A stretch of DNA of 64,000 nucleotides, taken from contig NZ_QMEK01000005.1 in NCBI RefSeq assembly GCF_003390845.1, positions 186,001 to 250,000 of the forward strand. Reading direction: 5' to 3'. The DNA comes from Tropicimonas sp. IMCC34043 (GTDB lineage Bacteria > Pseudomonadota > Alphaproteobacteria > Rhodobacterales > Rhodobacteraceae). The notes beneath the pieces are model-generated. The model made no database searches. It worked only from the letters and a program-made list of their open reading frames with translations, and was not told where the DNA came from. A program made the position numbers and the translations under genes. Numbering within the stretch: the first letter of the stretch is position 1; each line of letters opens with the position of its first letter. Positions 21,573 through 31,592 of this stretch are shown piece after piece.

Positions 21573-22290
21573 CTTCCTTGCGGCCGCGGCGTTCTCTCCA
21601 GCCCGGGGCCGGGACAATCTCGGACCTCGTTCTCGGGATTGACGGCCAGCAGTCCCGTCAGCCGATCCGCACGGAACACCGCAACGACGGGCTTGCCCGC
21701 GCCGCCCGATCCGGCGACAGGGCTGCGATCAGGCGACAGCGCCGAAGCTCGGCTGGCCGAGGCGGTCCGCGACACTACGGTCGGCAGGCCTCGGCGACTG
21801 CGATGACAACGCCCCGTCCGAAAGCGCCGACTGCCGGTTGGTGACAGCTGTCATCGACGTCCCCGGTCCATGGAAGTCCGCCGTCCGGGTCGATTGGGAC
21901 AGGCTGACGTGGATCTTTTGGGATACTGGCGTCCGACTGCGCGGCGCTGTCGGAAAGGTCGCTTCGCAAGCAGCAGAGGCGGCGTCTTTTGAAACATGGA
22001 GCGCTGCCGAATAGGCGGCCCAATCCGTGAGCCAGAAACTCTCTGACAAATCCGGGCCGGATCATGGACGGGTCCTGCGGGACGGTCAGATTCAGCCGCT
22101 GTAAATCTGACGCGCTGATATCGTGACAAATGGTCAGGTCACCGCAATACGCGTCCGTCGCGCTTGATCCGGGACCACAGGAGTGACAACCTGAGGTAGA
22201 GTTCATTCCACATGAGGAATGTGGGATCGGATGACAACGGGCCCGTTCGGGACAGCGACGGGCCCAATAGACAAGAAGAAAGATGGGTCA
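21573..22290. other. Gene-poor stretch with a structured 5' leader at its right end
   Basis: I see no supported gene in this 718-base stretch; frames that stay open lack a ribosome-binding site and show no family motif. Structured elements are TCAGATT/AATCTGA (22086-22110), CCACAT-GAGGA-ATGTGG (22208-22224), and a perfect 8-bp stem GGGCCCGT/ACGGGCCC (22239-22265) only 25 bases before the start of the next gene. The last two lie in the probable 5' untranslated region of the hydrolase gene and could affect its expression. Confidence 0.45.
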
Positions 22291-23403
22291 ATGCGTATTC
22301 CAAAGCGCCCTACGACGACACTGCCTCTGGCCGGAATGGCCTCGTTCGCCCTTGCCTTGACGGCGATGCCATCCCTGGCCTGCACCGGCATCATTTTGAC
22401 CAGCGGCGATGCCGGGGTCGTGCCGGCCCGAACGCTTGAATTCGGGTTCGACATGGACTCCGACGTGATTGCTGTTCCCGCGGGAACCAAGATCACGACG
22501 CTGGCTTTGAACCCCGATCTGAGCGGCTTCACCTATACTACGAAATATGGTTTTGTCGGGCTTAATGCGCTGAACAAACCGGTTACGCTCGATGGGATGA
22601 ACGAAAAGGGGCTCTATTTCGGCTCATTCTATTTGCCTGGCGAAGCGGTGTTCGGGACGGCCACACCGGAGAATGCCGATCACGTCATTTCGAGCGAAGA
22701 AGTCGGCAACTGGATCCTCGGCAATTTTTCTTCAGTCGAGGAACTGCGCGCGGCTTTGCCCGGGCTGGAGGTTGTCGGAACCAATATCCCGCAAATAGGC
22801 GGGGTCGCCCCGCTGCATTATTCGGTTGTGGATGCCTCCGGGGCAGCAATCGTGATCGAATATACAGCCGCCGGATTGAGAATATTCGACAACACGGTCC
22901 ACGTCATAACCAATTCACCGACCTATGACTGGCACATGACCAATCTGCGGAACTACATTGGCCTGAATCCCGACAATTCCGCTCCGATCAGCGTCGATGG
23001 GCAAACGCTTGCAGGATTTGGTCAGGGTACGGGCATGTTCGGTCTTCCCGGCGATTTCTCGCCGCCCTCGCGCTTCGTGCGGGCGACGGCGTTCGTCGCA
23101 ACAACGGATCATGGCAAGACATCGGACGAGGCGGTTTTCCGGGCCTTCCATATCCTGAACACCTTCGACATCCCGAAAGGGTCTGTGCGCGAGGCGGGTA
23201 AGGACGGTACACAGGATTTCACGGTCTGGACCTCGGCGGCCGATACCAAGAAGGGGGTCTATTTCTTCAAGAGCTATCAGTCGCAGCAGATCGAAAGCGT
23301 CACAGTGGCCGAGGCTCTTGAAGGTCTTGACGCCGTCGCTACAACTCCGATGGACCGCACGCTGTCCGTCGTGAACATAACCGGTGACTTGAAGAACAAG
23401 TAA
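22291..23403 (+). CDS. Periplasmic choloylglycine-hydrolase-like Ntn amidase
   Basis: A 370-residue member of the choloylglycine hydrolase/penicillin V acylase (linear amide C-N hydrolase) family. A Sec signal peptide of about 30 residues ends MPSLA, so cleavage would expose Cys31, the N-terminal nucleophile, in the expected context CTGIILTSGDAGVVPARTLE. The Arg of the ARTLE block is a conserved active-site residue, and ENADHV, ISSEEVGNWIL and VHVITNSPTYDWHM follow family order. It would hydrolyse amide bonds (bile salts, penicillin V or N-acyl homoserine lactones in different members) in the periplasm. It stands alone. The start at 22291 is chosen because it opens the signal peptide. Confidence 0.87.
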   Translation: MRIPKRPTTTLPLAGMASFALALTAMPSLACTGIILTSGDAGVVPARTLEFGFDMDSDVIAVPAGTKITTLALNPDLSGFTYTTKYGFVGLNALNKPVTLDGMNEKGLYFGSFYLPGEAVFGTATPENADHVISSEEVGNWILGNFSSVEELRAALPGLEVVGTNIPQIGGVAPLHYSVVDASGAAIVIEYTAAGLRIFDNTVHVITNSPTYDWHMTNLRNYIGLNPDNSAPISVDGQTLAGFGQGTGMFGLPGDFSPPSRFVRATAFVATTDHGKTSDEAVFRAFHILNTFDIPKGSVREAGKDGTQDFTVWTSAADTKKGVYFFKSYQSQQIESVTVAEALEGLDAVATTPMDRTLSVVNITGDLKNK

Positions 23404-23623: not shown

Positions 23624-24958
23624 CTATGCGCGCAGCCCTTCGGCAATCGGTGTGCGCATGACCAGAATTGCCGGCAGCAGCGACAACAGCGCTGTGCCCG
23701 ACAGGAAGCCGCAGGCGAGGTGAATTTCGCTCCACCCGAGGGTGGCTGTCACCAGCACATCGGTGCGCGCGCTGACGATACGCGACAGGATCGCGGTTGT
23801 GGCGTACCCCGCCAGAATGCCGCCCAGCGTGCCGAGCGTCAGCATCGACGCGCCATAGCACCAGACCACGGCCATGACGAAGCGGCGCGGGGCGCCGAGC
23901 GCGCGCAGCATTGCGGTCTGGCGCTGGAACAGACGGGTCAGGATGAACAGCCCCATCAGGACCGAGGCCGCGACCAGACCCTGCGTGACAAGGCTCATCA
24001 ATGACATCGCCTGCCGGATGTCGCCCATGACCCGATAAAGGTTGGCAAGCACGGTGCCGGGAAAGAACGCCATGGTTTCGCTGTCCCGGGTGAAGTCCGA
24101 TTTCAGCGCATAATTCGCCCAGAGCGCCGACGACCGCACGATGACCGCCGGGGTGCCCGGAAAGTAGTCGGGATCGAATGGCGGCCCGATCCGGTCGCCG
24201 CGTTCCGGCGCGTGTCCATTGGCAAGGCCATGAACCTCCCAAACGCCCTCAACCGGTATCAGGATCGCGTGGTCCCAGGGGGTGCCGGACGGGGGCAGGC
24301 GCCCCACGACGGTCAGGTCGAAGCCGTCATGGTGGTGGCCGTGTTCGTCCTCTTCCTCTTCATCGTGGTCGTCTTCCTGACCGTGTACGGGCGTGAAGAC
24401 ATCGCCGATCCGAACCGGTGCGGCAGCACCGGCAATCGCCTCGGTCGAGGTCTGCCACATCCGTCCCTCGATCTCGCCGTCGCCGAGATGCCGGACAAAG
24501 GCGTCGATGGTGCCGATCAGCGGCGCGGTCAGGTAGCTGTCGCCAAACGCTATCGGGGCCGCAATATCGACGTTCTCGTGGTCTGCGATGTCCTGATAGA
24601 CCCGCCCGGACAGCAGCGGCACGTCCGAGGGCCGAAGGAAGATCGTGGCCAGGGTCATGGTCAGTTCGCTGCCCGGGGCCGACACGACCAGATCGAACTT
24701 GTCGGCAGCATGGGCCATGCCCTGACGCAGGCCACGTTCCTGCACGATCACCCCGATCCCCATGCCGACGGAAACCGAGATCAGCAGAACGAAGATCAGG
24801 TTGGCCCAGCGAAAGCGCCAGAGGATTGCCCTGACCAGCGCCCACGGCGCGAAGCCGCGCAGCAGGATCGCGGCAATCACGGCCAGAGGCAGAAGCAAGC
24901 CGGCGGTGATCAGGCTGTCCTGCGCCCCGGCCGAAAGTGTGTCCCAGAGATTGCGCAT
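23624..24958 (-). CDS. FtsX/MacB-type ABC transporter permease with His/Asp/Glu-rich loop
   Basis: A 444-residue FtsX-family permease. There are hydrophobic segments at about residues 18-33 and 53-72, a long periplasmic domain, and three more segments in the last 150 residues, the first starting near SLVTQGLVAASVLMGLFI. The unusual feature is an acidic/His-rich loop at residues 192-211 (HDEEEEDEHGHHH), which suggests divalent-metal contact. It overlaps the ATPase gene by one ATG (ATGA) and is last in an operon led by alkaline phosphatase. FtsX-type transporters move lipoproteins or transduce force rather than import solutes; a metal-related role is only an inference. Confidence 0.87.
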   Translation of the reverse strand: MRNLWDTLSAGAQDSLITAGLLLPLAVIAAILLRGFAPWALVRAILWRFRWANLIFVLLISVSVGMGIGVIVQERGLRQGMAHAADKFDLVVSAPGSELTMTLATIFLRPSDVPLLSGRVYQDIADHENVDIAAPIAFGDSYLTAPLIGTIDAFVRHLGDGEIEGRMWQTSTEAIAGAAAPVRIGDVFTPVHGQEDDHDEEEEDEHGHHHDGFDLTVVGRLPPSGTPWDHAILIPVEGVWEVHGLANGHAPERGDRIGPPFDPDYFPGTPAVIVRSSALWANYALKSDFTRDSETMAFFPGTVLANLYRVMGDIRQAMSLMSLVTQGLVAASVLMGLFILTRLFQRQTAMLRALGAPRRFVMAVVWCYGASMLTLGTLGGILAGYATTAILSRIVSARTDVLVTATLGWSEIHLACGFLSGTALLSLLPAILVMRTPIAEGLRA

Positions 24959-25635
24959 CAGGTGGCCGCCTCGTCCAGAATCCGCCCGTCCTGAACGGCA
25001 AGAACGCGGTCCATCCGGGCATGAAGGTTCGCATCGTGGCTGACCGCGATCAGGGTCTTGCCCTTGTTCCGCGCCAGCGCCGCGAGATCGTCGATCAGTC
25101 GGTCGGCTGCGGCGCGGTCGAGGCTGGCCGTCGGCTCATCCGCCAGGATCACCCCGGCGTCCCCGGCCATGGCGCGGGCGACCGAAACCCGCTGACGCTC
25201 GCCGCCCGAGAAGCTCGACACCGAACGGTCAAGCTCCTGCAATCCCAGATCGGTCAGCCGGGACTTGGCGCCGTGGCGCAGTGCCGCGCGCTCGCCGCGC
25301 GGCCGGAACATCTGTGTCAGCGCGGCGTTGCCGAGCGCGTCGAGTTCCTCGAACAGCAGGAAATCCTGAAACACGATACCGATATGAGCGGCACGGAAGC
25401 GGGCGCGACGCTCGGCGCCTATGGCCAGCAGGTCGGTGTCACCCCATGCAACCCGGCCGGAACAGGTTTCGAGCAGCCCGGCCAGCGCGAACAGCAGCGT
25501 CGATTTCCCGGCGCCGGTCGGACCCTTGATCCCGATCAGGGACCCGGGGGCGATTGTGAGGCGGGGAACGGACAGCAGGACGCGGCCACCCGGACGGCGC
25601 ACCTCCAGGTCCATGACCTCCAGCGGCAATGTCAT
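24958..25635 (-). CDS. LolD/MacB-type ABC transporter ATP-binding protein
   Basis: A 225-residue ATPase with Walker A GPTGAGKST at residues 38-46, signature SFSGGERQRVSVARAMAG and Walker B VILADEPTASLDR, followed by the H-loop LIAVSHD. It is the size and type that partner FtsX/LolC-like permeases. I chose the ATG at 25635 (MTLPLEVMDL), preceded by AAGGA; an upstream ATG at 25698 has no ribosome-binding site. It overlaps the permease by four bases. It lies 77 bases after the Tat-signal protein gene. Confidence 0.9.
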   Translation of the reverse strand: MTLPLEVMDLEVRRPGGRVLLSVPRLTIAPGSLIGIKGPTGAGKSTLLFALAGLLETCSGRVAWGDTDLLAIGAERRARFRAAHIGIVFQDFLLFEELDALGNAALTQMFRPRGERAALRHGAKSRLTDLGLQELDRSVSSFSGGERQRVSVARAMAGDAGVILADEPTASLDRAAADRLIDDLAALARNKGKTLIAVSHDANLHARMDRVLAVQDGRILDEAAT

Positions 25636-25712
25636 CGGTACAGAGTCCTTGCAGTCGTCAAATCGGCTCAGTGTCCGGGATGCCACCTGTGTGGCCATGC
25701 CCGCGGTCTGAG

Positions 25713-26132
25713 TCAGGAAAAAGTGGCGTCGGTCAGGCGCAGGAGGCTGACAAAGCCGGTCTCGGGATCCTTGTAGGCGCCCAGTTCCAGCACGCCGCGC
25801 GTGTCGATCCGGACGTTGAAGGGTTCCACGTCCACCACCCGCTTGGTGTAGACGGCCACGATGTCTTGCGGCCAGTCGGTTTCAGATTCGCAAAACGGGC
25901 AGGTCGCCATCGGCATCTTGGTCAGGACGAAGAAATTCAGGTCCGCTTTCAGAGGCGGCGCCATGAAACCGTCGACGGTAATGCGCTGGCCTTCCAGCGA
26001 GCGGGCAAGATCCGAGAACGCGCCGCCTTTGACGTAGAGGTCGCGCAGTTTGATCACCCCGTCGGAACCCCGGGCAGTCGAGGCCAACGCCGATGACGCA
26101 GCCGTGGCAAGGAAGAAGCGGCGGGACAGCAA
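25713..26132 (-). CDS. Small Tat-exported protein with a CxxC pair
   Basis: A 139-residue protein with a twin-arginine signal (SRRFFLATAASSALAST). The mature part contains a C-x2-C pair (Cys78 and Cys81 in MATCPFCESE) and a conserved-looking segment DGFMAPPLKADLNFFVLTKM. I recall similar short proteins of the DUF3299 type beside LolD/FtsX-like transporters, but the assignment is uncertain. The CxxC pair could bind a metal or act in redox. It is between alkaline phosphatase and the ABC transporter genes on the same strand, so all four are probably one operon. A periplasmic location follows from the signal. Confidence 0.75.
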   Translation of the reverse strand: MLSRRFFLATAASSALASTARGSDGVIKLRDLYVKGGAFSDLARSLEGQRITVDGFMAPPLKADLNFFVLTKMPMATCPFCESETDWPQDIVAVYTKRVVDVEPFNVRIDTRGVLELGAYKDPETGFVSLLRLTDATFS

Positions 26133-26222
26133 GGTGGCCTCCTGAAATCTCGGATCGGGCGTAGGAACGGACTGAAGGACCCCGGCCGGGGCCCTTCAGG
26201 TTTGTTGTGCTGGCGGCGGGGC

Positions 26223-27713
26223 CTAGTTGGCGTTTGTCGCGTAGTTCATCACGTGGAAGATCACGTTCTGCTCGATGGTTCCGTCAAACAGGTGCGCCCA
26301 GGGACCCTTTGCATAAAGCGCCACGTCGACACCCGAATGCGACTCGGAGTCCTTCGGGATGAGGACCTGCTGGTTGTAGTCGAGGTCCTGGGCCTGCTCC
26401 TGTGTGATCTCCGGGCGTCCGTCCGGCGCGGTGAAGCGGCCGTCGTCCTGCTTGACCATGACCGAGCTTGCGCCGTTCAGATAACCGACGACGGTAAAGG
26501 GCTTGCCGTCGTCCGCCAGCACCAGCTCGTCGCTGTGCTCGATCCCCTGCTTGGCAACGTCAAAGCACAGGCCGTCGATCGGCGTGCCACGGCCGCAATA
26601 GCCATTCATGGCAACGGCATGTTCGTGGTCGGCGGTGACAATGATCAGCGTGTCCGCGTCATCGGTCATTTCGTCGGCAAGGGCCACGGCGTCCGCAAAT
26701 GCCTTGCCGTCGATCATGGCGCGCTTGGCGTTGGTGGCATGGTTGGCGTGGTCGACGCGGCCGGCCTCGATCTCGAGGTAGAAGCCGTTTTCGTTGGTGC
26801 TGAGCGCTTCGATCGCCTTGGCGGTCATGTCGGCCAGCGAAGGCTCGGTTTCCGGGCGGTCGGCCTCGTAGGAGGCGTGGCTGTCGGACCAGAAACCCAG
26901 GATCGGCGCGTTGTCGGCGGCGGCGTCGAGGCCGGCCTTGTCGTGGACGAACTGAATGCCCAGGCCCTTGGCGCGATCGATCAGGTTCACGTCATCGGGG
27001 CGGTGGCCGGTGCCGCCATTCGGCGTGCCCATGCCCTTGGGGACAAAGTAGCGCGCGCCGCCACCCAGAGCGACGTCAAGCGTTCCGGCTTCCATGGCGT
27101 CGATCATCTGGGTCGCGATATCGGCCTGTGCGGTGCAGCCCTCGGGGACGGAATCTTCCCAGTTGCGGTTCGCGGTCTTGGCATAGACGGCGGCCGGCGT
27201 GGCATGGGTCAGACGCGCGGTCGTGACGGCACCCACGGATTTTCCGGCCTCCGTCATCAACTCCGAGAACAGGGTCAGCTCGTTGCCCGAGACCTTGGCG
27301 CAATCGCCATGGATCGCGTTTTCGCCAAGGTTGATCAGGTTGAAGCGCTGCTTGACGCCCGTGTTCATCGCACCGGCCGTCGGGGCGGAGTCCGGGGTTT
27401 GGGCATTGATGTTGTAGGTCTTCACCAGCGCGAGGTAGGGGAATGCCTCCTGCGGCTGCACATAGTCGTCGCCCATGCCGCCTTCCATCTGACCCGCATA
27501 GAGACGGTTCATGTAGTTCGAGGCGACGCCGTTGCCGTCGGCGACGAACAGGATCACATTCCGCGCCTTGTTGGTGTTCTGCGTCTTGGCCAGTTCGGCC
27601 TGAATGCGCTCTTGACCGGCCTTGTACCAATCGCTGTCGGCCTGGGCGATTTCCTGTGCGCCGGCACTTCCGGCGGCAAGAGCGATCGCGGAAACCGCAA
27701 TGAAATGTCTCAT
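26223..27713 (-). CDS. phoA: Alkaline phosphatase (PhoA family)
   Basis: A 496-residue secreted phosphomonoesterase. The Sec signal ends at about residue 19 (SAGA). Active-site blocks are VADGNG (first metal-binding Asp), the nucleophile region PDSAPTAGAMNTGVK with the DSA serine, EIEAGRVDHANHATN (second metal cluster), TADHEHA, and SESHSGVDVALYAKGP with a Zn-binding His. The enzyme releases phosphate from phosphomonoesters in the periplasm and needs Zn and Mg. It is first in an operon with a Tat-signal protein and an ABC transporter. A Pho-box-like repeat lies about 52 bases upstream, so induction by phosphate starvation is likely. Confidence 0.92.
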   Translation of the reverse strand: MRHFIAVSAIALAAGSAGAQEIAQADSDWYKAGQERIQAELAKTQNTNKARNVILFVADGNGVASNYMNRLYAGQMEGGMGDDYVQPQEAFPYLALVKTYNINAQTPDSAPTAGAMNTGVKQRFNLINLGENAIHGDCAKVSGNELTLFSELMTEAGKSVGAVTTARLTHATPAAVYAKTANRNWEDSVPEGCTAQADIATQMIDAMEAGTLDVALGGGARYFVPKGMGTPNGGTGHRPDDVNLIDRAKGLGIQFVHDKAGLDAAADNAPILGFWSDSHASYEADRPETEPSLADMTAKAIEALSTNENGFYLEIEAGRVDHANHATNAKRAMIDGKAFADAVALADEMTDDADTLIIVTADHEHAVAMNGYCGRGTPIDGLCFDVAKQGIEHSDELVLADDGKPFTVVGYLNGASSVMVKQDDGRFTAPDGRPEITQEQAQDLDYNQQVLIPKDSESHSGVDVALYAKGPWAHLFDGTIEQNVIFHVMNYATNAN

Positions 27714-28056
27714 GGATAGTTCCTGTTCGTTTTTTGGCGTTCCCCCGTGCGGTAGTCTTGGTGCGTGACAGAATTGGAAAAATCTTGCGACAGTTCTGCG
27801 AAGAGACTGACTGGAGCGCGTTGACGTTGCGACAACACGAGGATTTGCATTTTGTTATCCACAGGTAACCGGCCCGGCAGGTCCGTGTGACCGGACCGGC
27901 GTCGTCACCGAGCGGGCGAGGTTGCCCGGTCTGGTCGACCGGACCGGGCGTCTTAAACCTCAACCTCTGCCTTGATCGCCGTCGAGGCGACTGGGGCGCG
28001 AGCTCCCGGCCATCGTTCCGGCGCGGATGCTCACCTGTCCGGAACCGCCGCGCGTT
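27714..28056. promoter_or_regulatory. phoA upstream region with Pho-box-like repeat and a stem-loop
   Basis: Read on the minus strand, CTGTCGCAAGA (27793-27783) and CTGTCAC (27771-27765) are 22 bases apart, which is two 11-base Pho-box units, with a T-rich middle unit. A further TTGTCGCAACG lies upstream (near 27835). The right part holds a perfect 8-bp stem GCCCGGTC/GACCGGGC (27924-27949) that may end the leftward autotransporter transcript. No gene is seen in these 343 bases. Confidence 0.4.
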
Positions 28057-30978
28057 TCAGAATCTCCAGGTCACGTCGGCTTGCAGGACCGAGGAACTGA
28101 CGTCCTCGGCGAATTGTCCGACATAGGAAATTCCGACGCTCCCCTGACGGCTGATCAGAACGTCGATGCCAAGCTCGACGAGCGCAGTGTTTTCGGCCAA
28201 CGGCACGCCGGAGACCGTGAAGTCGGAGCCGGAGGCGGCGTTGAACGCGAAGTCCTGCTGTGGCGTGAGGTCCCCGAAGGCGTTCTGCCAGGCAAGCGAG
28301 CCACGCGCGATCAGCGCCTTGCCGCCAGAAAGCTCGACGTTGGTTGCGGCTCTGACACCGATGGTGCCGTAACCGACGTCCGAGGAACTCGATGACCCTT
28401 TCAGGCCGGCATCGGCACCGCTTTCGGTGAAGCTGTCGGTGTCGACATTCACCCAGGCCAGTCCCGCGAAGGGCTCCAGCGCGATGTCCCGGAGGGCGAC
28501 GCCATATCCGATTTCCGCGAAGGCCTGCGCGGTTCGGGCATCGTAATCGGCCTTCGCCTTGTCACTGGTGCCGGCAAGCGAGATCGTGCGCTCCGAGTCT
28601 ATCTGGCTGAAAATGTAGTTGGCCCCGAAGCGCAGGCTGAACGGACCCGCCGCCGTCCCCGCATAGATCCCCAGCAACTGGCTGTCGGCGTCAAAGGAAC
28701 TGGAAAGCTCGTCGACGTCGGAGTTTGATTGGTAAAAGCCAAAGGCGGCGCCGAGAGTCCAGTTGTCGATCTGGGTATCCGCGCCAAGGATGATGCCGCC
28801 GACGGTTTCGCTTACGTCATAGGTTCCGTTGCTGCCATCCAGATCGTTCCAGCCGCCGAAGCCCTGCGCCCAGAATGACGAACCGGATCCGGTTGCCATG
28901 GGCGTGCCCGGATAGGCGGTGCCTGCGGTCTGCGTGGACCGGGACACCTCGGCGCCCATCGAGGAGATTCTGGACAAGGCGGTCAGGGCGGTGTTCTGCC
29001 CGGGGTCGGTTGCCTGCCGCAGACGCCCGAGGATTGCCAGACGGCCATAGAGGCTGTCGCCGATCAATACGGACTGCTCGCTTGCAAAGCCTTCACCCGA
29101 GAGGGCGTCCAGCGCACCGGGCAACTGGTTCGCATCAAGCCGGTAGAGCGGATCGAGCGCCGACGGCAGGTCCGCCAGGATGTTTCCCACCTTGGTGTTG
29201 ATGAGGCTGTCGATGGCAGCGCCCACGGCCTTGCCGTTGTCGGTGTTGCCTGCCAGCCGGGCCAGCCCCGCGGAGACGTTCAGCGTGACCTCGGTCGGGG
29301 AATAGCCGAGCGTCGGCACGAACAGGTCCGGCAGGCCCGGGGTTTCAAGCGTTGCAAAGGTGCCGGTGATGTCCTGGTTTGCGGTGACGAGTGTGTAGGT
29401 CTTCTTGTAGACGTCAGACTGGAAGCGCGCCGCCAGCGTGCCGTCGAGCCGGGCCAGGTCGGTCTGCAGCATGTCATTGCTCTGCGCGTCGATCCGCAGG
29501 CTCAGTGTCCCGGTATCGGTCTGGGCGTAGGTGCCGCTGATCTGCTGGACGGTGCCCGCACCGGGGGCTGACACACCAAGCCAGCCGCTGTTCTCGAACC
29601 GGGTTTCGGGCCCGGCCGAAATGTTGACGCGTCCGTCGATCGTGCCCTCGTTGACAACCATCGTGCCGCGCGCATCGGGGCCCGAGACGATGGCATCCGC
29701 GCCGGGATCGGCGATCAGGGTGCCAGCGTTCAGCAATGTGCCGTAGGTGCCGTTCATCCGCACGCCGGCACTGCCAAGGCCGGTTGCCGTGATCGTGCCG
29801 TCGTTGGTGATGACGCCGTATGTCTCGCCCTTGATGCCGACACTCGACCTCCCCTCCACGAGGATCGTCGAATGGTTCACCACGTCATCCCCGCCGGGTT
29901 GCGTGACGATGCCGGTCGCATTGTCGGACGAGACCACCAGCGGCGTCAGATTGCGGATCGGATTATAGATGCCCGGTATTGTGGCGACATAGCCGTACTG
30001 GACACCGTCGAGGATGTAGATGCCGATCACCTTGTCGCCATAGGCGGAATTGGCCGAGACAACTTCGCCGGGGACGTCGATTTCGTACCATGTGACGGTT
30101 CCATCGGCAGCGACATGCATCACCGCCGGGTGAACCGCGAGATCGGCGGTGATCCAGTTGGTCACAAGATTGTAGGCGCCCGCCGTGCCTGCGCCGGTAA
30201 TGCCTTCGAAATGCGTCGCAATTGCCAGCGGGTGATCGTAGGTCGTATAGGTGCCGGTCGCCAGATCATAGATATAGCCGTGTTCGAGGTCGGCCCTCTC
30301 CCCGCGCTTGAAATATCCACCCGAGATCTTGTCGCCATAGATGCCATAGGCCGTCGTACTGATGGCATCGGGAATGTTGTTGTTGATGTACTGGCCGCTG
30401 TCGATCTCGTAGATGAACGCATTGCCGGTCGCGTACTCGGTGTCATAATTGCCGACCACCCGGTTGCCGAACGTGCTGTGGGCGATGGTAAACAGGGTCT
30501 TGGCACCTCTGTCGGGATAGATCAGGTCCTTGATCTGCTCGCCGGGCGCGGCCGCGCCGTCATAGATATAGCTCAGGTCGTTCGGTGCCGAGTCCTCGGT
30601 CTGGTAGCTGCCGACAGTGCGCAGGATACCGGCCGGGGTCCCAAAGCTCGGACCGTAGGGCGATGAACTGATGGCGCCGGGAAAGTTCACACCGTCCTCG
30701 GTGGCCACCGGCATCGGAGCCCACACTTGCGTGCCAAGGTTGTAGTAGAGCCCACCGGTCGCGGTCGTGCCGGGGATCACATAGTTGCCGACGACGTTGT
30801 CGCCACGAATTCCCGTGAGAAATGTGGTCGTTTCCCCGAATGTCAGAGTCTCGTAGCTGGACACAACGGGATCTTTCGCATGGGCGGAAGATGCGATAAT
30901 TCCCGTACCTAAACCGATTACGACGACATACCCAATCCGTGAATACGGCATTCCTGACGGTCTTGACCCAATCGTCAT
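28057..30978 (-). CDS. Large autotransporter with repeat-rich passenger domain
   Basis: A 973-residue type V secretion protein. Residues 1 to about 33 are a signal peptide ending SSAHA. The next 300 or so residues hold several imperfect 50-60-residue repeats with the core VVGNY or ISGGYF, then a tyrosine-rich HGYIYD or NAFIYE and a GTYTTYDHP-like turn; they resemble HAF-type extracellular repeats. A linker region with Gly/Thr-rich beta-helix-like sequence (NDGTITATGLG, NEGTIDGRVNI) follows, and from about residue 700 the C-terminal beta-barrel begins (SSFWAQGFGGWNDLDG) and ends in ADVTWRF with the terminal Phe. I chose the ATG at 30978 because GAAGGGAG precedes it. It is likely surface exposed; the ligand is unknown. 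Confidence 0.88.
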   Translation of the reverse strand: MTIGSRPSGMPYSRIGYVVVIGLGTGIIASSAHAKDPVVSSYETLTFGETTTFLTGIRGDNVVGNYVIPGTTATGGLYYNLGTQVWAPMPVATEDGVNFPGAISSSPYGPSFGTPAGILRTVGSYQTEDSAPNDLSYIYDGAAAPGEQIKDLIYPDRGAKTLFTIAHSTFGNRVVGNYDTEYATGNAFIYEIDSGQYINNNIPDAISTTAYGIYGDKISGGYFKRGERADLEHGYIYDLATGTYTTYDHPLAIATHFEGITGAGTAGAYNLVTNWITADLAVHPAVMHVAADGTVTWYEIDVPGEVVSANSAYGDKVIGIYILDGVQYGYVATIPGIYNPIRNLTPLVVSSDNATGIVTQPGGDDVVNHSTILVEGRSSVGIKGETYGVITNDGTITATGLGSAGVRMNGTYGTLLNAGTLIADPGADAIVSGPDARGTMVVNEGTIDGRVNISAGPETRFENSGWLGVSAPGAGTVQQISGTYAQTDTGTLSLRIDAQSNDMLQTDLARLDGTLAARFQSDVYKKTYTLVTANQDITGTFATLETPGLPDLFVPTLGYSPTEVTLNVSAGLARLAGNTDNGKAVGAAIDSLINTKVGNILADLPSALDPLYRLDANQLPGALDALSGEGFASEQSVLIGDSLYGRLAILGRLRQATDPGQNTALTALSRISSMGAEVSRSTQTAGTAYPGTPMATGSGSSFWAQGFGGWNDLDGSNGTYDVSETVGGIILGADTQIDNWTLGAAFGFYQSNSDVDELSSSFDADSQLLGIYAGTAAGPFSLRFGANYIFSQIDSERTISLAGTSDKAKADYDARTAQAFAEIGYGVALRDIALEPFAGLAWVNVDTDSFTESGADAGLKGSSSSSDVGYGTIGVRAATNVELSGGKALIARGSLAWQNAFGDLTPQQDFAFNAASGSDFTVSGVPLAENTALVELGIDVLISRQGSVGISYVGQFAEDVSSSVLQADVTWRF

Positions 30979-31592
30979 GGTGGACTCCCTTCGCGCCAAT
31001 GAAAATCCCCTACCTTCATCCCGCGATGGGATTGGAATAGGCGAGTGGTCAACGATTGTTGGATGACCGGGTTTTTACAACAGATTTTTTTCCTGAAATA
31101 CTGACTGGTGCTAAGGCGCATCTGTCAGGATGGCTTTTCGTCGGATAATTTACGCTCGGAAACTGCCGACCGTGTTCGGCAATTGGAGCCAATGAAGCCC
31201 GCAGGAAACGAGGGAGAAATCAAAACCCGCAGGCCTCATTGGAAGTCGGCCGAAGCCGTAGGTCATCCGTTCAGGGATGTTCACGCCCCTCCGTACCATT
31301 CGACCGGAGCGGCCGTACTGACGCAGGTTGGTGTCGGTGAAAAAAATGCGCTGCGCCTCGGCCTTCGCCTCACCGGCCTCGGGCGGCGCGCCGACCCGCG
31401 TTCCCGCGGCTTGCGCGGTTCAAACCTGACCGTCACGCGCCAAACAATCGATTGGTCAACAATTGGTGCAAGGTCTTCGATCTGATGATGACTGGCTCGC
31501 GGAGACCCGAGAGGCTAGTACCTTCCAACATCTGTCGGAGCGCCGCCGTATTGCCCGCGCCTCGACCCCATTTGCACACAGCGAGACATGAC
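30979..31592. other. Divergent intergenic region, no gene seen
   Basis: These 614 bases separate the leftward autotransporter from the rightward alcohol dehydrogenase. The first 120 bases are AT-rich, with T-runs near 31071-31092, and probably hold the autotransporter promoter. Two short repeats stand out: CAAC-GATT-GTTG inside a GGTCA...TGACC frame (31048-31069), and a related AACAATCGATTGGTCAACAATTGG-like patch around 31443-31466. Both could be regulator sites. One frame stays open but has no family motif or ribosome-binding site. Confidence 0.35.

What the first reader, a model, noticed from the sequence alone, without database searches (positions are those of the whole stretch)
23624..27713. 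Alkaline phosphatase operon with an FtsX-type transporter carrying a metal-binding-like loop
The four genes phoA, Tat-signal CxxC protein, LolD-like ATPase and FtsX-like permease run on one strand with gaps of 90 and 77 bases and an overlap. The permease has HDEEEEDEHGHHH in its periplasmic part and the small protein has a CxxC pair. PhoA needs Zn. A linked system for metal handling or lipoprotein release in the periplasm is plausible and, to my knowledge, not a standard grouping.
Basis: partly seen in the sequence, partly recalled or inferred. Interest (0 to 1): 0.55.

Follow-up and report, generated by a model that had tools for sequence, protein, structure and literature searches.

The report
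Phosphatase operon with zinc-handling transporter
A secreted zinc-dependent phosphatase is encoded together with a small helper protein and a membrane machine related to bacterial zinc systems, and the four genes keep this order in many marine bacteria, which suggests a dedicated way of supplying the enzyme with its metal.

Summary
The grouping is not a local oddity. Among 198 genomes of the same family, PhoA occurs in 21, the CPFC protein in 22 and both in 18. Of the 80 closest CPFC loci in named genomes, 76 show all four genes in order. The CPFC protein is a divergent relative of DUF3299 (ZrgE/PA4066) and the permease belongs to the ZrgB/MacB/LolE fold class. The set looks like a variant of the zinc-responsive Zrg/PA4063-PA4066 systems with ZrgA missing and phoA added. 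PHO-type boxes (23 of 79) and Zur-type boxes (16 of 79) lie upstream of phoA far above shuffled controls; the window has only the PHO type. The acid/His-rich stretch is a lineage-specific insert between two invariant histidines, so the loop is not conserved but its frame is. Best reading: an ATP-driven periplasmic zinc-supply module dedicated to PhoA. Lipoprotein release is not supported. Metal binding, transport direction and the PhoA link are inferred; none was shown.

The parts
26223..27713 (-). phoA, alkaline phosphatase of PF00245, animal-type; Sec-type N-terminus without lipobox
   Evidence: PF00245 E 8.8e-104; best solved relatives are rat intestinal and human placental alkaline phosphatases, with aligned D, S, E, D-H, DHxH and H motifs
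25713..26132 (-). Tat-type (SRRFFLA) small protein with C78-P-F-C81, OB-fold, divergent DUF3299/ZrgE-like
   Evidence: no Pfam hit at 0.001; C78 and C81 invariant in 50 of 50; Foldseek best hit 4hsp = PA4066 DUF3299, E 3.9e-4; profile-profile match to DUF3299 proteins
24958..25698 (-). ABC ATPase (MacB/LolD/YbbA-like); likely true start 25635
   Evidence: PF00005 E 1.8e-26; Walker A GPTGAGKS, signature FSGGERQR, Walker B ILADEP; homologues mostly align from about residue 22-26
23624..24958 (-). FtsX/MacB-type permease with an extra N-terminal helix (residues 10-33)
   Evidence: PF02687 weak, E 4.1e-4; AlphaFold2 model pLDDT 90; LolE, MacB, HrtB and 5xu1 are the closest folds
24329..24367 (-). 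acid/His-rich insert HDEEEEDEHGHHH, residues 198-210 of the permease, between invariant H192 and H210
   Evidence: window has 21 residues from H192 to the column of residue 212 against 12-17 in 49 of 51 sequences; one other sequence (L109) has 53 residues with 11 His; model below pLDDT 50 at 198-203
27765..27793 (-). PHO-type direct repeat CTGTCGC-N15-CTGTCAC (two 7-mers 22 bases apart), 80 to 52 bases upstream of the phoA start
   Evidence: 13 of 14 positions; only match at up to 2 mismatches in the window, chance mean 1.19, so it gains weight only from the homologues
26172..26199 (-). GC-rich stem-loop (12 bp, GGCC loop) between phoA and the CPFC gene
   Evidence: z -1.65 for the gap; stem-loops are common in the same gap of homologues, 42 of 72 gaps with z below -2

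Best explanation
The operon is a PhoA-dedicated variant of the Zrg/PA4063-PA4066 type of periplasmic zinc system. Phosphate shortage (PhoB) switches on phoA and its partners; in a subset of relatives zinc shortage (Zur) does so as well. PhoA is exported unfolded and without metal. The CPFC protein leaves the cytoplasm folded through Tat, holds zinc (inferred) and hands it to PhoA. The MacB-type ATPase-permease does not have to move zinc across the membrane: like other members of its fold class it may turn cytoplasmic ATP hydrolysis into movement of its periplasmic domain, whose conserved histidines (192, 210, 243, 249) would hold zinc, so that the metal is loaded on or released from the CPFC protein. 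The acid/His-rich insert of this species would be a flexible zinc-collecting arm. Shown: gene order and its conservation, families and folds (by prediction), invariant Cys and His, upstream boxes in homologues. Inferred: zinc as the metal, its binding, the hand-over to PhoA and the direction.
For: Order phoA-CPFC-ATPase-permease in 76 of 80 named loci, in Rhodobacterales, Hyphomicrobiales, Halomonadaceae, an Ectothiorhodospiraceae MAG, a Granulosicoccus MAG and a MAG labelled Deltaproteobacteria. Co-occurrence of PhoA and CPFC in 18 genomes (21 with PhoA, 22 with CPFC, of 198; Fisher p 6e-19; kinship not corrected). CPFC structure nearest to PA4066 and profile match to DUF3299; L148 is an intermediate, a Pfam DUF3299 protein that carries CPFC next to a MacB-type permease and ATPase. 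Distant paralogues of the permease (22-26% identical) sit in zrgA-ATPase-permease clusters with DUF3299 nearby. Zur-type boxes upstream of phoA in 16 of 79 against 0 of 790 dinucleotide shuffles; PHO-type boxes in 23 of 79 against 3 of 790 and 1 of 79 on the reverse strand. In G083 the two parts are split: a lone CPFC gene with a PHO-type box (13/14) and a transporter with a Zur-type box (12/13) plus a His-rich PCuAC protein. PhoA keeps the metal-site motifs of zinc phosphatases (residue roles recalled).
Against: No Zur-type box in the window: 0 matches at up to 2 mismatches of the consensus or up to 3 of the own genome's znuA site. Six of 23 family orthologue loci have the transporter without adjacent PhoA; one of these has the phosphatase PhoX, not a zinc enzyme as far as I recall, with a truncated CPFC gene. 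In a class-wide sample only 4 of 13 CPFC genomes have PhoA; one other has a PQQ dehydrogenase next to CPFC. Three of 21 PhoA genomes lack CPFC. Rubellimicrobium (L127) has phoA and CPFC without the transporter. No metal binding was tested. Knock-out of zrgE (the DUF3299 member) had no effect on growth with zinc chelators in Vibrio cholerae (PMC9820375, passage). Zur would derepress a zinc enzyme just when zinc is scarce, which needs an explanation.
Confidence: 0.5

Rival explanations
1. Zinc importer. The transporter is a second ZnuABC-like route that brings zinc into the cytoplasm, induced with PhoA because phosphate starvation raises zinc demand; the CPFC protein acts as its binding protein.
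For: Zrg systems support growth of Vibrio under zinc limitation (PMC9817125 abstract and passages; PMC9820375 passages); Zur-type boxes in 16 of 79.
Against: The fold class (LolE, MacB, HrtB, FtsX) has no clear import path as far as I know; ZrgA, reported as essential in Vibrio, is missing from the operon and not found in the own genome (the search rings in 6 of 8 genomes). Tight linkage to phoA would be unexplained.
Confidence: 0.2
2. Exporter of a metal or a metal-chelator complex across the envelope, as proposed for PA4063-PA4066 (pyochelin-cobalt).
For: MacB-like fold; PMC11481552 (abstract and passages) reports genetics in favour of such a role for PA4063-PA4066.
Against: No chelator-biosynthesis, membrane-fusion or TolC-type gene was seen among the four genes or the two neighbours scanned; the link to phoA and PHO-type boxes would be unexplained.
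Confidence: 0.12
3. Thiol-redox helper: the CPFC protein keeps or rearranges the disulfides of PhoA (4 Cys), and the transporter exports a reductant.
For: Invariant C-x-x-C (50 of 50); PhoA has 4 Cys.
Against: The fold is OB/DUF3299-like, not thioredoxin-like; in DUF3299 relatives the aligned place reads C-x-H, which fits a metal site better than a redox pair.
Confidence: 0.08
4. Lipoprotein release (LolCDE-like).
For: LolE is among the closest folds; the ATPase resembles LolD/YbbA.
Against: LolCE score 19.6 against a cut-off of 362; no lipoprotein seen in the operon; one permease gene only.
Confidence: 0.03
5. Shared regulation only: the genes ride together as a mobile phosphate or zinc cassette without functional contact.
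For: Presence in several classes suggests transfer as a unit; the transporter also occurs without phoA.
Against: The same order is kept across many genera at 44-75% permease identity.
Confidence: 0.07

Closest known systems
ZrgABCDE of Vibrio (zrgA = PF10986, zrgB permease, zrgC ATPase, zrgE = DUF3299)
   Same: Separate ATPase and 4-TM MacB-like permease plus a periplasmic DUF3299-type protein; zinc/Zur connection
   Different: No ZrgA here; the DUF3299-like member is divergent, with CPFC; phoA is the first gene; PHO-type box; no Zur-type box in the window
PA4063-PA4066 of Pseudomonas aeruginosa
   Same: PA4066 (4hsp) is the nearest solved fold to the CPFC protein; PA4064/PA4065 are described as a MacB-type transporter
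   Different: PA4063 counterpart missing; phoA linked; PA4063-PA4066 was proposed to export pyochelin-cobalt (PMC11481552)
LolCDE / MacB / HrtBA / FtsEX (MacB-type ABC superfamily)
   Same: Predicted permease fold
   Different: Four conserved periplasmic His, an extra N-terminal helix, no fusion protein, one permease
Bacterial alkaline phosphatase PhoA (PF00245)
   Same: Full-length match over the cut-off
   Different: Closer to animal alkaline phosphatases than to the E. coli enzyme; carries its own accessory operon

Membership tests
Zrg/PA4063-PA4066-type system | MacB/FtsX-type permease with a separate ATPase | tested here: met
Zrg/PA4063-PA4066-type system | ZrgA (PF10986) zinc-binding protein in the operon | tested here: not met
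   No PF10986 hit among the four proteins and two neighbours nor in the own genome; positive control: rings in 6 of 8 genomes. Hence not filed as a Zrg member, only as a variant of that kind
Zrg/PA4063-PA4066-type system | DUF3299 (PF11736) protein | tested here: inconclusive
   Below Pfam detection; fold match 4hsp E 3.9e-4, Z 9.0 with the next row at 8.4; hhalign probability 90.7; intermediate L148
Zrg/PA4063-PA4066-type system | Zur control | tested here: not met
   No Zur-type site in the window; present in 16 of 79 upstream regions, all in homologues
LolCDE lipoprotein-releasing system | LolC/LolE permeases over the equivalog cut-off | tested here: not met
   19.6 against 362.45 bits
Alkaline phosphatase PF00245 | full-length match over the gathering score | tested here: met
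   348.2 against 24.4 bits, profile 1-421 of 423
Pho regulon | PHO box (two 11-nt direct repeat units) upstream | tested here: inconclusive
   Window has two 7-mers 22 bases apart, 13/14, with a weak middle repeat; 23 of 79 upstream regions pass, window included
Zinc binding by permease loop and CPFC protein | metal binding | not testable with these tools
   needs purified protein

The most novel reading that the evidence does not exclude
A MacB-type ABC machine powers metal insertion into one secreted enzyme: ATP hydrolysis in the cytoplasm drives transfer of zinc from a Tat-exported CPFC carrier to PhoA in the periplasm. This would be an ATP-driven metallation system for a phosphatase, with joint phosphate and zinc control in part of its carriers.
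Probability: 0.3. Interest if true: 0.85.

Novelty: new variant of a known kind. Interest (0 to 1): 0.6.

Why it matters
How exported PhoA obtains zinc in the periplasm has, as far as I know, no named machine in bacteria. In phosphate-poor and zinc-poor seawater, zinc supply can limit phosphatase activity (idea recalled; PMC9337993, passages, discusses zinc use for phosphorus acquisition in Synechococcus). A conserved operon that binds phosphatase, carrier and transporter together, with PHO-type and in part Zur-type boxes, would make that link directly testable by gene removal. It also offers a handle on the DUF3299/ZrgE proteins and MacB-like zinc transporters, whose roles the papers I read call unclear.

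Tried and rejected
Lipoprotein release: rejected on family score, lack of lipoprotein and single permease. E. coli-like PhoA: the best sequence relatives are animal enzymes. The acid/His-rich stretch as the conserved core: rejected, it is an insert of this lineage. Zur control in the window itself: no site. The other ZnuA-family locus of the own genome (C14) looked like a manganese locus by its box, a recalled motif, and was dropped.

Sequence search of solved structures with the CPFC profile: 0 hits up to E 10. PF11736 in the own genome: 0, but no control genome rang either. The structure comparison for CPFC lists many OB-fold proteins within one Z unit of 4hsp, so the fold match alone does not prove kinship; the Foldseek E-value, the profile comparison and the shared gene neighbourhood carry it.

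Limits of counts: one search kept the best 80 of at least 575 relatives, so 76 of 80 is biased to close relatives; one search shows distant members without PhoA. Three motif patterns and a few thresholds were tried before the table; 7 of 780 random 300-base pieces from the same loci also reached the Zur threshold. Upstream regions come from related genomes, so counts are not independent. The stem-loop in the phoA-CPFC gap could be a terminator that lowers or stops read-through; not resolved. Structural alignment of the invariant His in space was not possible (no coordinates available to scripts).
Full report
What is there. On the minus strand lie phoA (27713-26223), a 139-residue Tat-type protein with C78-P-F-C81 (26132-25713), an ABC ATPase (25698-24958, likely start 25635) and an FtsX/MacB-type permease (24958-23624). 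Downstream, convergent, is a choloylglycine hydrolase-like gene (22219-23403); upstream, in the same direction, an autotransporter-type protein (28057-30999).

Conservation. The 23 loci above 35% identity, window included, are orthologue candidates. Of these 23, 17 have phoA next to the CPFC-ATPase-permease genes, two of the 17 with a divergent (L053) or broken (L044) phoA. The six others: L033 and L051 have CPFC and transporter without phoA; L038 and L041 have the transporter only; L043 has PhoX upstream and a truncated CPFC gene; L047 has the transporter followed by a His-rich PCuAC protein. PhoA is in 21 and CPFC in 22 of the 198 genomes (one CPFC hit weak), both in 18; Fisher p 6e-19, without correction for kinship.

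The four exceptions are L063 and L069 (contig ends), L079 (ATPase gene broken off) and L127 (no transporter). Carriers include Rhodobacterales and Hyphomicrobiales, two Halomonadaceae, an Ectothiorhodospiraceae MAG, a Granulosicoccus MAG and a MAG labelled Deltaproteobacteria. Further away the link loosens: in 385 genomes of the class, CPFC is in 13 (two weak), PhoA in 27, both in 4. Neighbours of the PhoA-less members include ZnuA with NicO (L146) and a PQQ dehydrogenase (L140).

The CPFC protein. Pfam finds nothing. C78, C81 and the frame F-x-VLT--P---CPFC-----WP are invariant in 50 sequences; 44 of 50 have an RR pair in the first 25 residues. The predicted structure (pLDDT 78) has a single PDB match below 0.001, 4hsp, the DUF3299 protein PA4066 (E 3.9e-4); VIA gives Z 9.0 at 3.3 A over 108 residues, with other OB-folds at 8.4, so the fold alone is not decisive. 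A profile comparison with nine DUF3299 proteins gives probability 90.7 and aligns CPFC with C-x-H of DUF3299. L148 carries a Pfam DUF3299 protein that itself reads CPFC, next to a MacB-type permease and ATPase. I take CPFC as a divergent DUF3299/ZrgE-like protein.

The permease. The model (pLDDT 90) matches LolE, MacB, HrtB and a pneumococcal relative, with an additional N-terminal helix. In 51 sequences H192, H210 and H243 are invariant and H249 is present in 50. The acid/His-rich stretch of the window is an insert between H192 and H210: 21 residues against 12-17 in 49 others and 53 (11 His) in Fulvimarina manganoxydans (L109). The ZnuA of the own genome has a loop of similar make-up (HDHDAEEEHVGDQEPPDEEGHAHSHH). 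In ZrgA of V. cholerae the His-rich region binds extra zinc but is dispensable (PMC9820375, abstract and passages). So the insert is best seen as an optional zinc-collecting arm on a conserved histidine frame.

Relation to Zrg. Distant paralogues of the permease (22-26% identical) lie in zrgA-ATPase-permease clusters: four of four tested (L024-L026, L029) have a PF10986 protein, and DUF3299-type proteins lie in all seven loci L024-L030. G018 and G171 have both systems in separate places; the window genome has the PhoA-linked one only, and a ZrgA search finds nothing there although it rings in 6 of 8 genomes. Papers: PA4063-PA4066 is described as Zur-regulated with a MacB-type transporter and proposed to export pyochelin-cobalt (PMC11481552, abstract and passages); PA4066 = 4hsp, OB-fold, role unknown (PMC8561739, passages); individual zrgD or zrgE knock-outs had no effect (PMC9820375, passages).

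Regulation. In 79 upstream regions (78 homologues and the window), a PHO-type repeat at 12 or more of 14 positions occurs in 23, against 3 of 790 shuffles and 1 of 79 on the reverse strand. A Zur-type site (pattern from five sites in PMC5387054, section 19 part 1) at 12 or more of 13 positions occurs in 16, against 0 of 790 and 7 of 780 random pieces of the same loci. Five regions have both. The genes upstream of the 16 Zur-type cases look varied by their N-termini, by eye only. The window has the PHO type at 27765-27793 and no Zur type, although the own genome has a Fur-family gene beside znuA with a site of that kind. In G083 the parts are split and carry one kind of box each. A review of Zur regulons has no occurrence of 'phosphatase' in its main text (PMC6103462). 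The gap between phoA and CPFC carries a GC stem-loop in the window and often in homologues (mean z -2.37, 42 of 72 below -2), so phoA may be expressed well above its partners, or the partners may have their own start.

Mechanism. I commit to a zinc-supply role for PhoA (0.5). PhoA keeps the zinc-phosphatase motifs in the alignment to animal enzymes (residue roles recalled). Tat export of the carrier fits a protein that must fold, and perhaps take up metal, before export. MacB-type machines are described as doing work in the periplasm (mechanotransmission; title of a reference listed in PMC9820375, otherwise recalled). Against it stand the PhoA-less cases, the PhoX case, the missing Zur box here and the lack of any binding data. 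The rivals are listed with their odds.

Novelty. I found no paper describing the phoA-linked set (searches; open-licence papers only). One study of PhoA neighbourhoods in Cobetia has no occurrence of 'ABC transporter' or 'permease' in its main text (PMC10974088). It is a new variant of a known kind, the Zrg-like MacB-type metal systems, dedicated to a phosphatase.

Noticed in passing
26172-26199: GC-rich stem-loop between phoA and the CPFC gene, without a T-run in the window; some homologues show stem-loops followed by T-runs, like intrinsic terminators.
   Followed up: partly
26223-27713: The phosphatase is closer to animal alkaline phosphatases (rat intestinal, human placental) than to the E. 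coli enzyme.
   Followed up: partly
27850-27875: A TTATCCACA sequence (DnaA-box-like, recalled motif) inside an imperfect palindrome upstream of phoA; probably chance.
   Followed up: no
28057-30999: Autotransporter beta-domain protein directly upstream of phoA, same strand.
   Followed up: no
22219-23403: Choloylglycine hydrolase / penicillin V amidase-like protein, convergent with the operon.
   Followed up: no
L109:7169-8593: Permease of Fulvimarina manganoxydans has a 53-residue acid/His-rich insert at the same place (11 His).
   Followed up: partly
L047:8077-8760: PCuAC-type protein with a long His-rich stretch follows the transporter where phoA and CPFC are missing; Zur-type box upstream of the ATPase.
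   Followed up: partly
L140:3535-5376: A PQQ-dependent dehydrogenase-like protein lies between CPFC and the permease, hinting that the module may serve other periplasmic metalloenzymes.
   Followed up: partly
L043:3986-5908: PhoX takes the place of PhoA upstream of a truncated CPFC gene and an intact transporter.
   Followed up: partly
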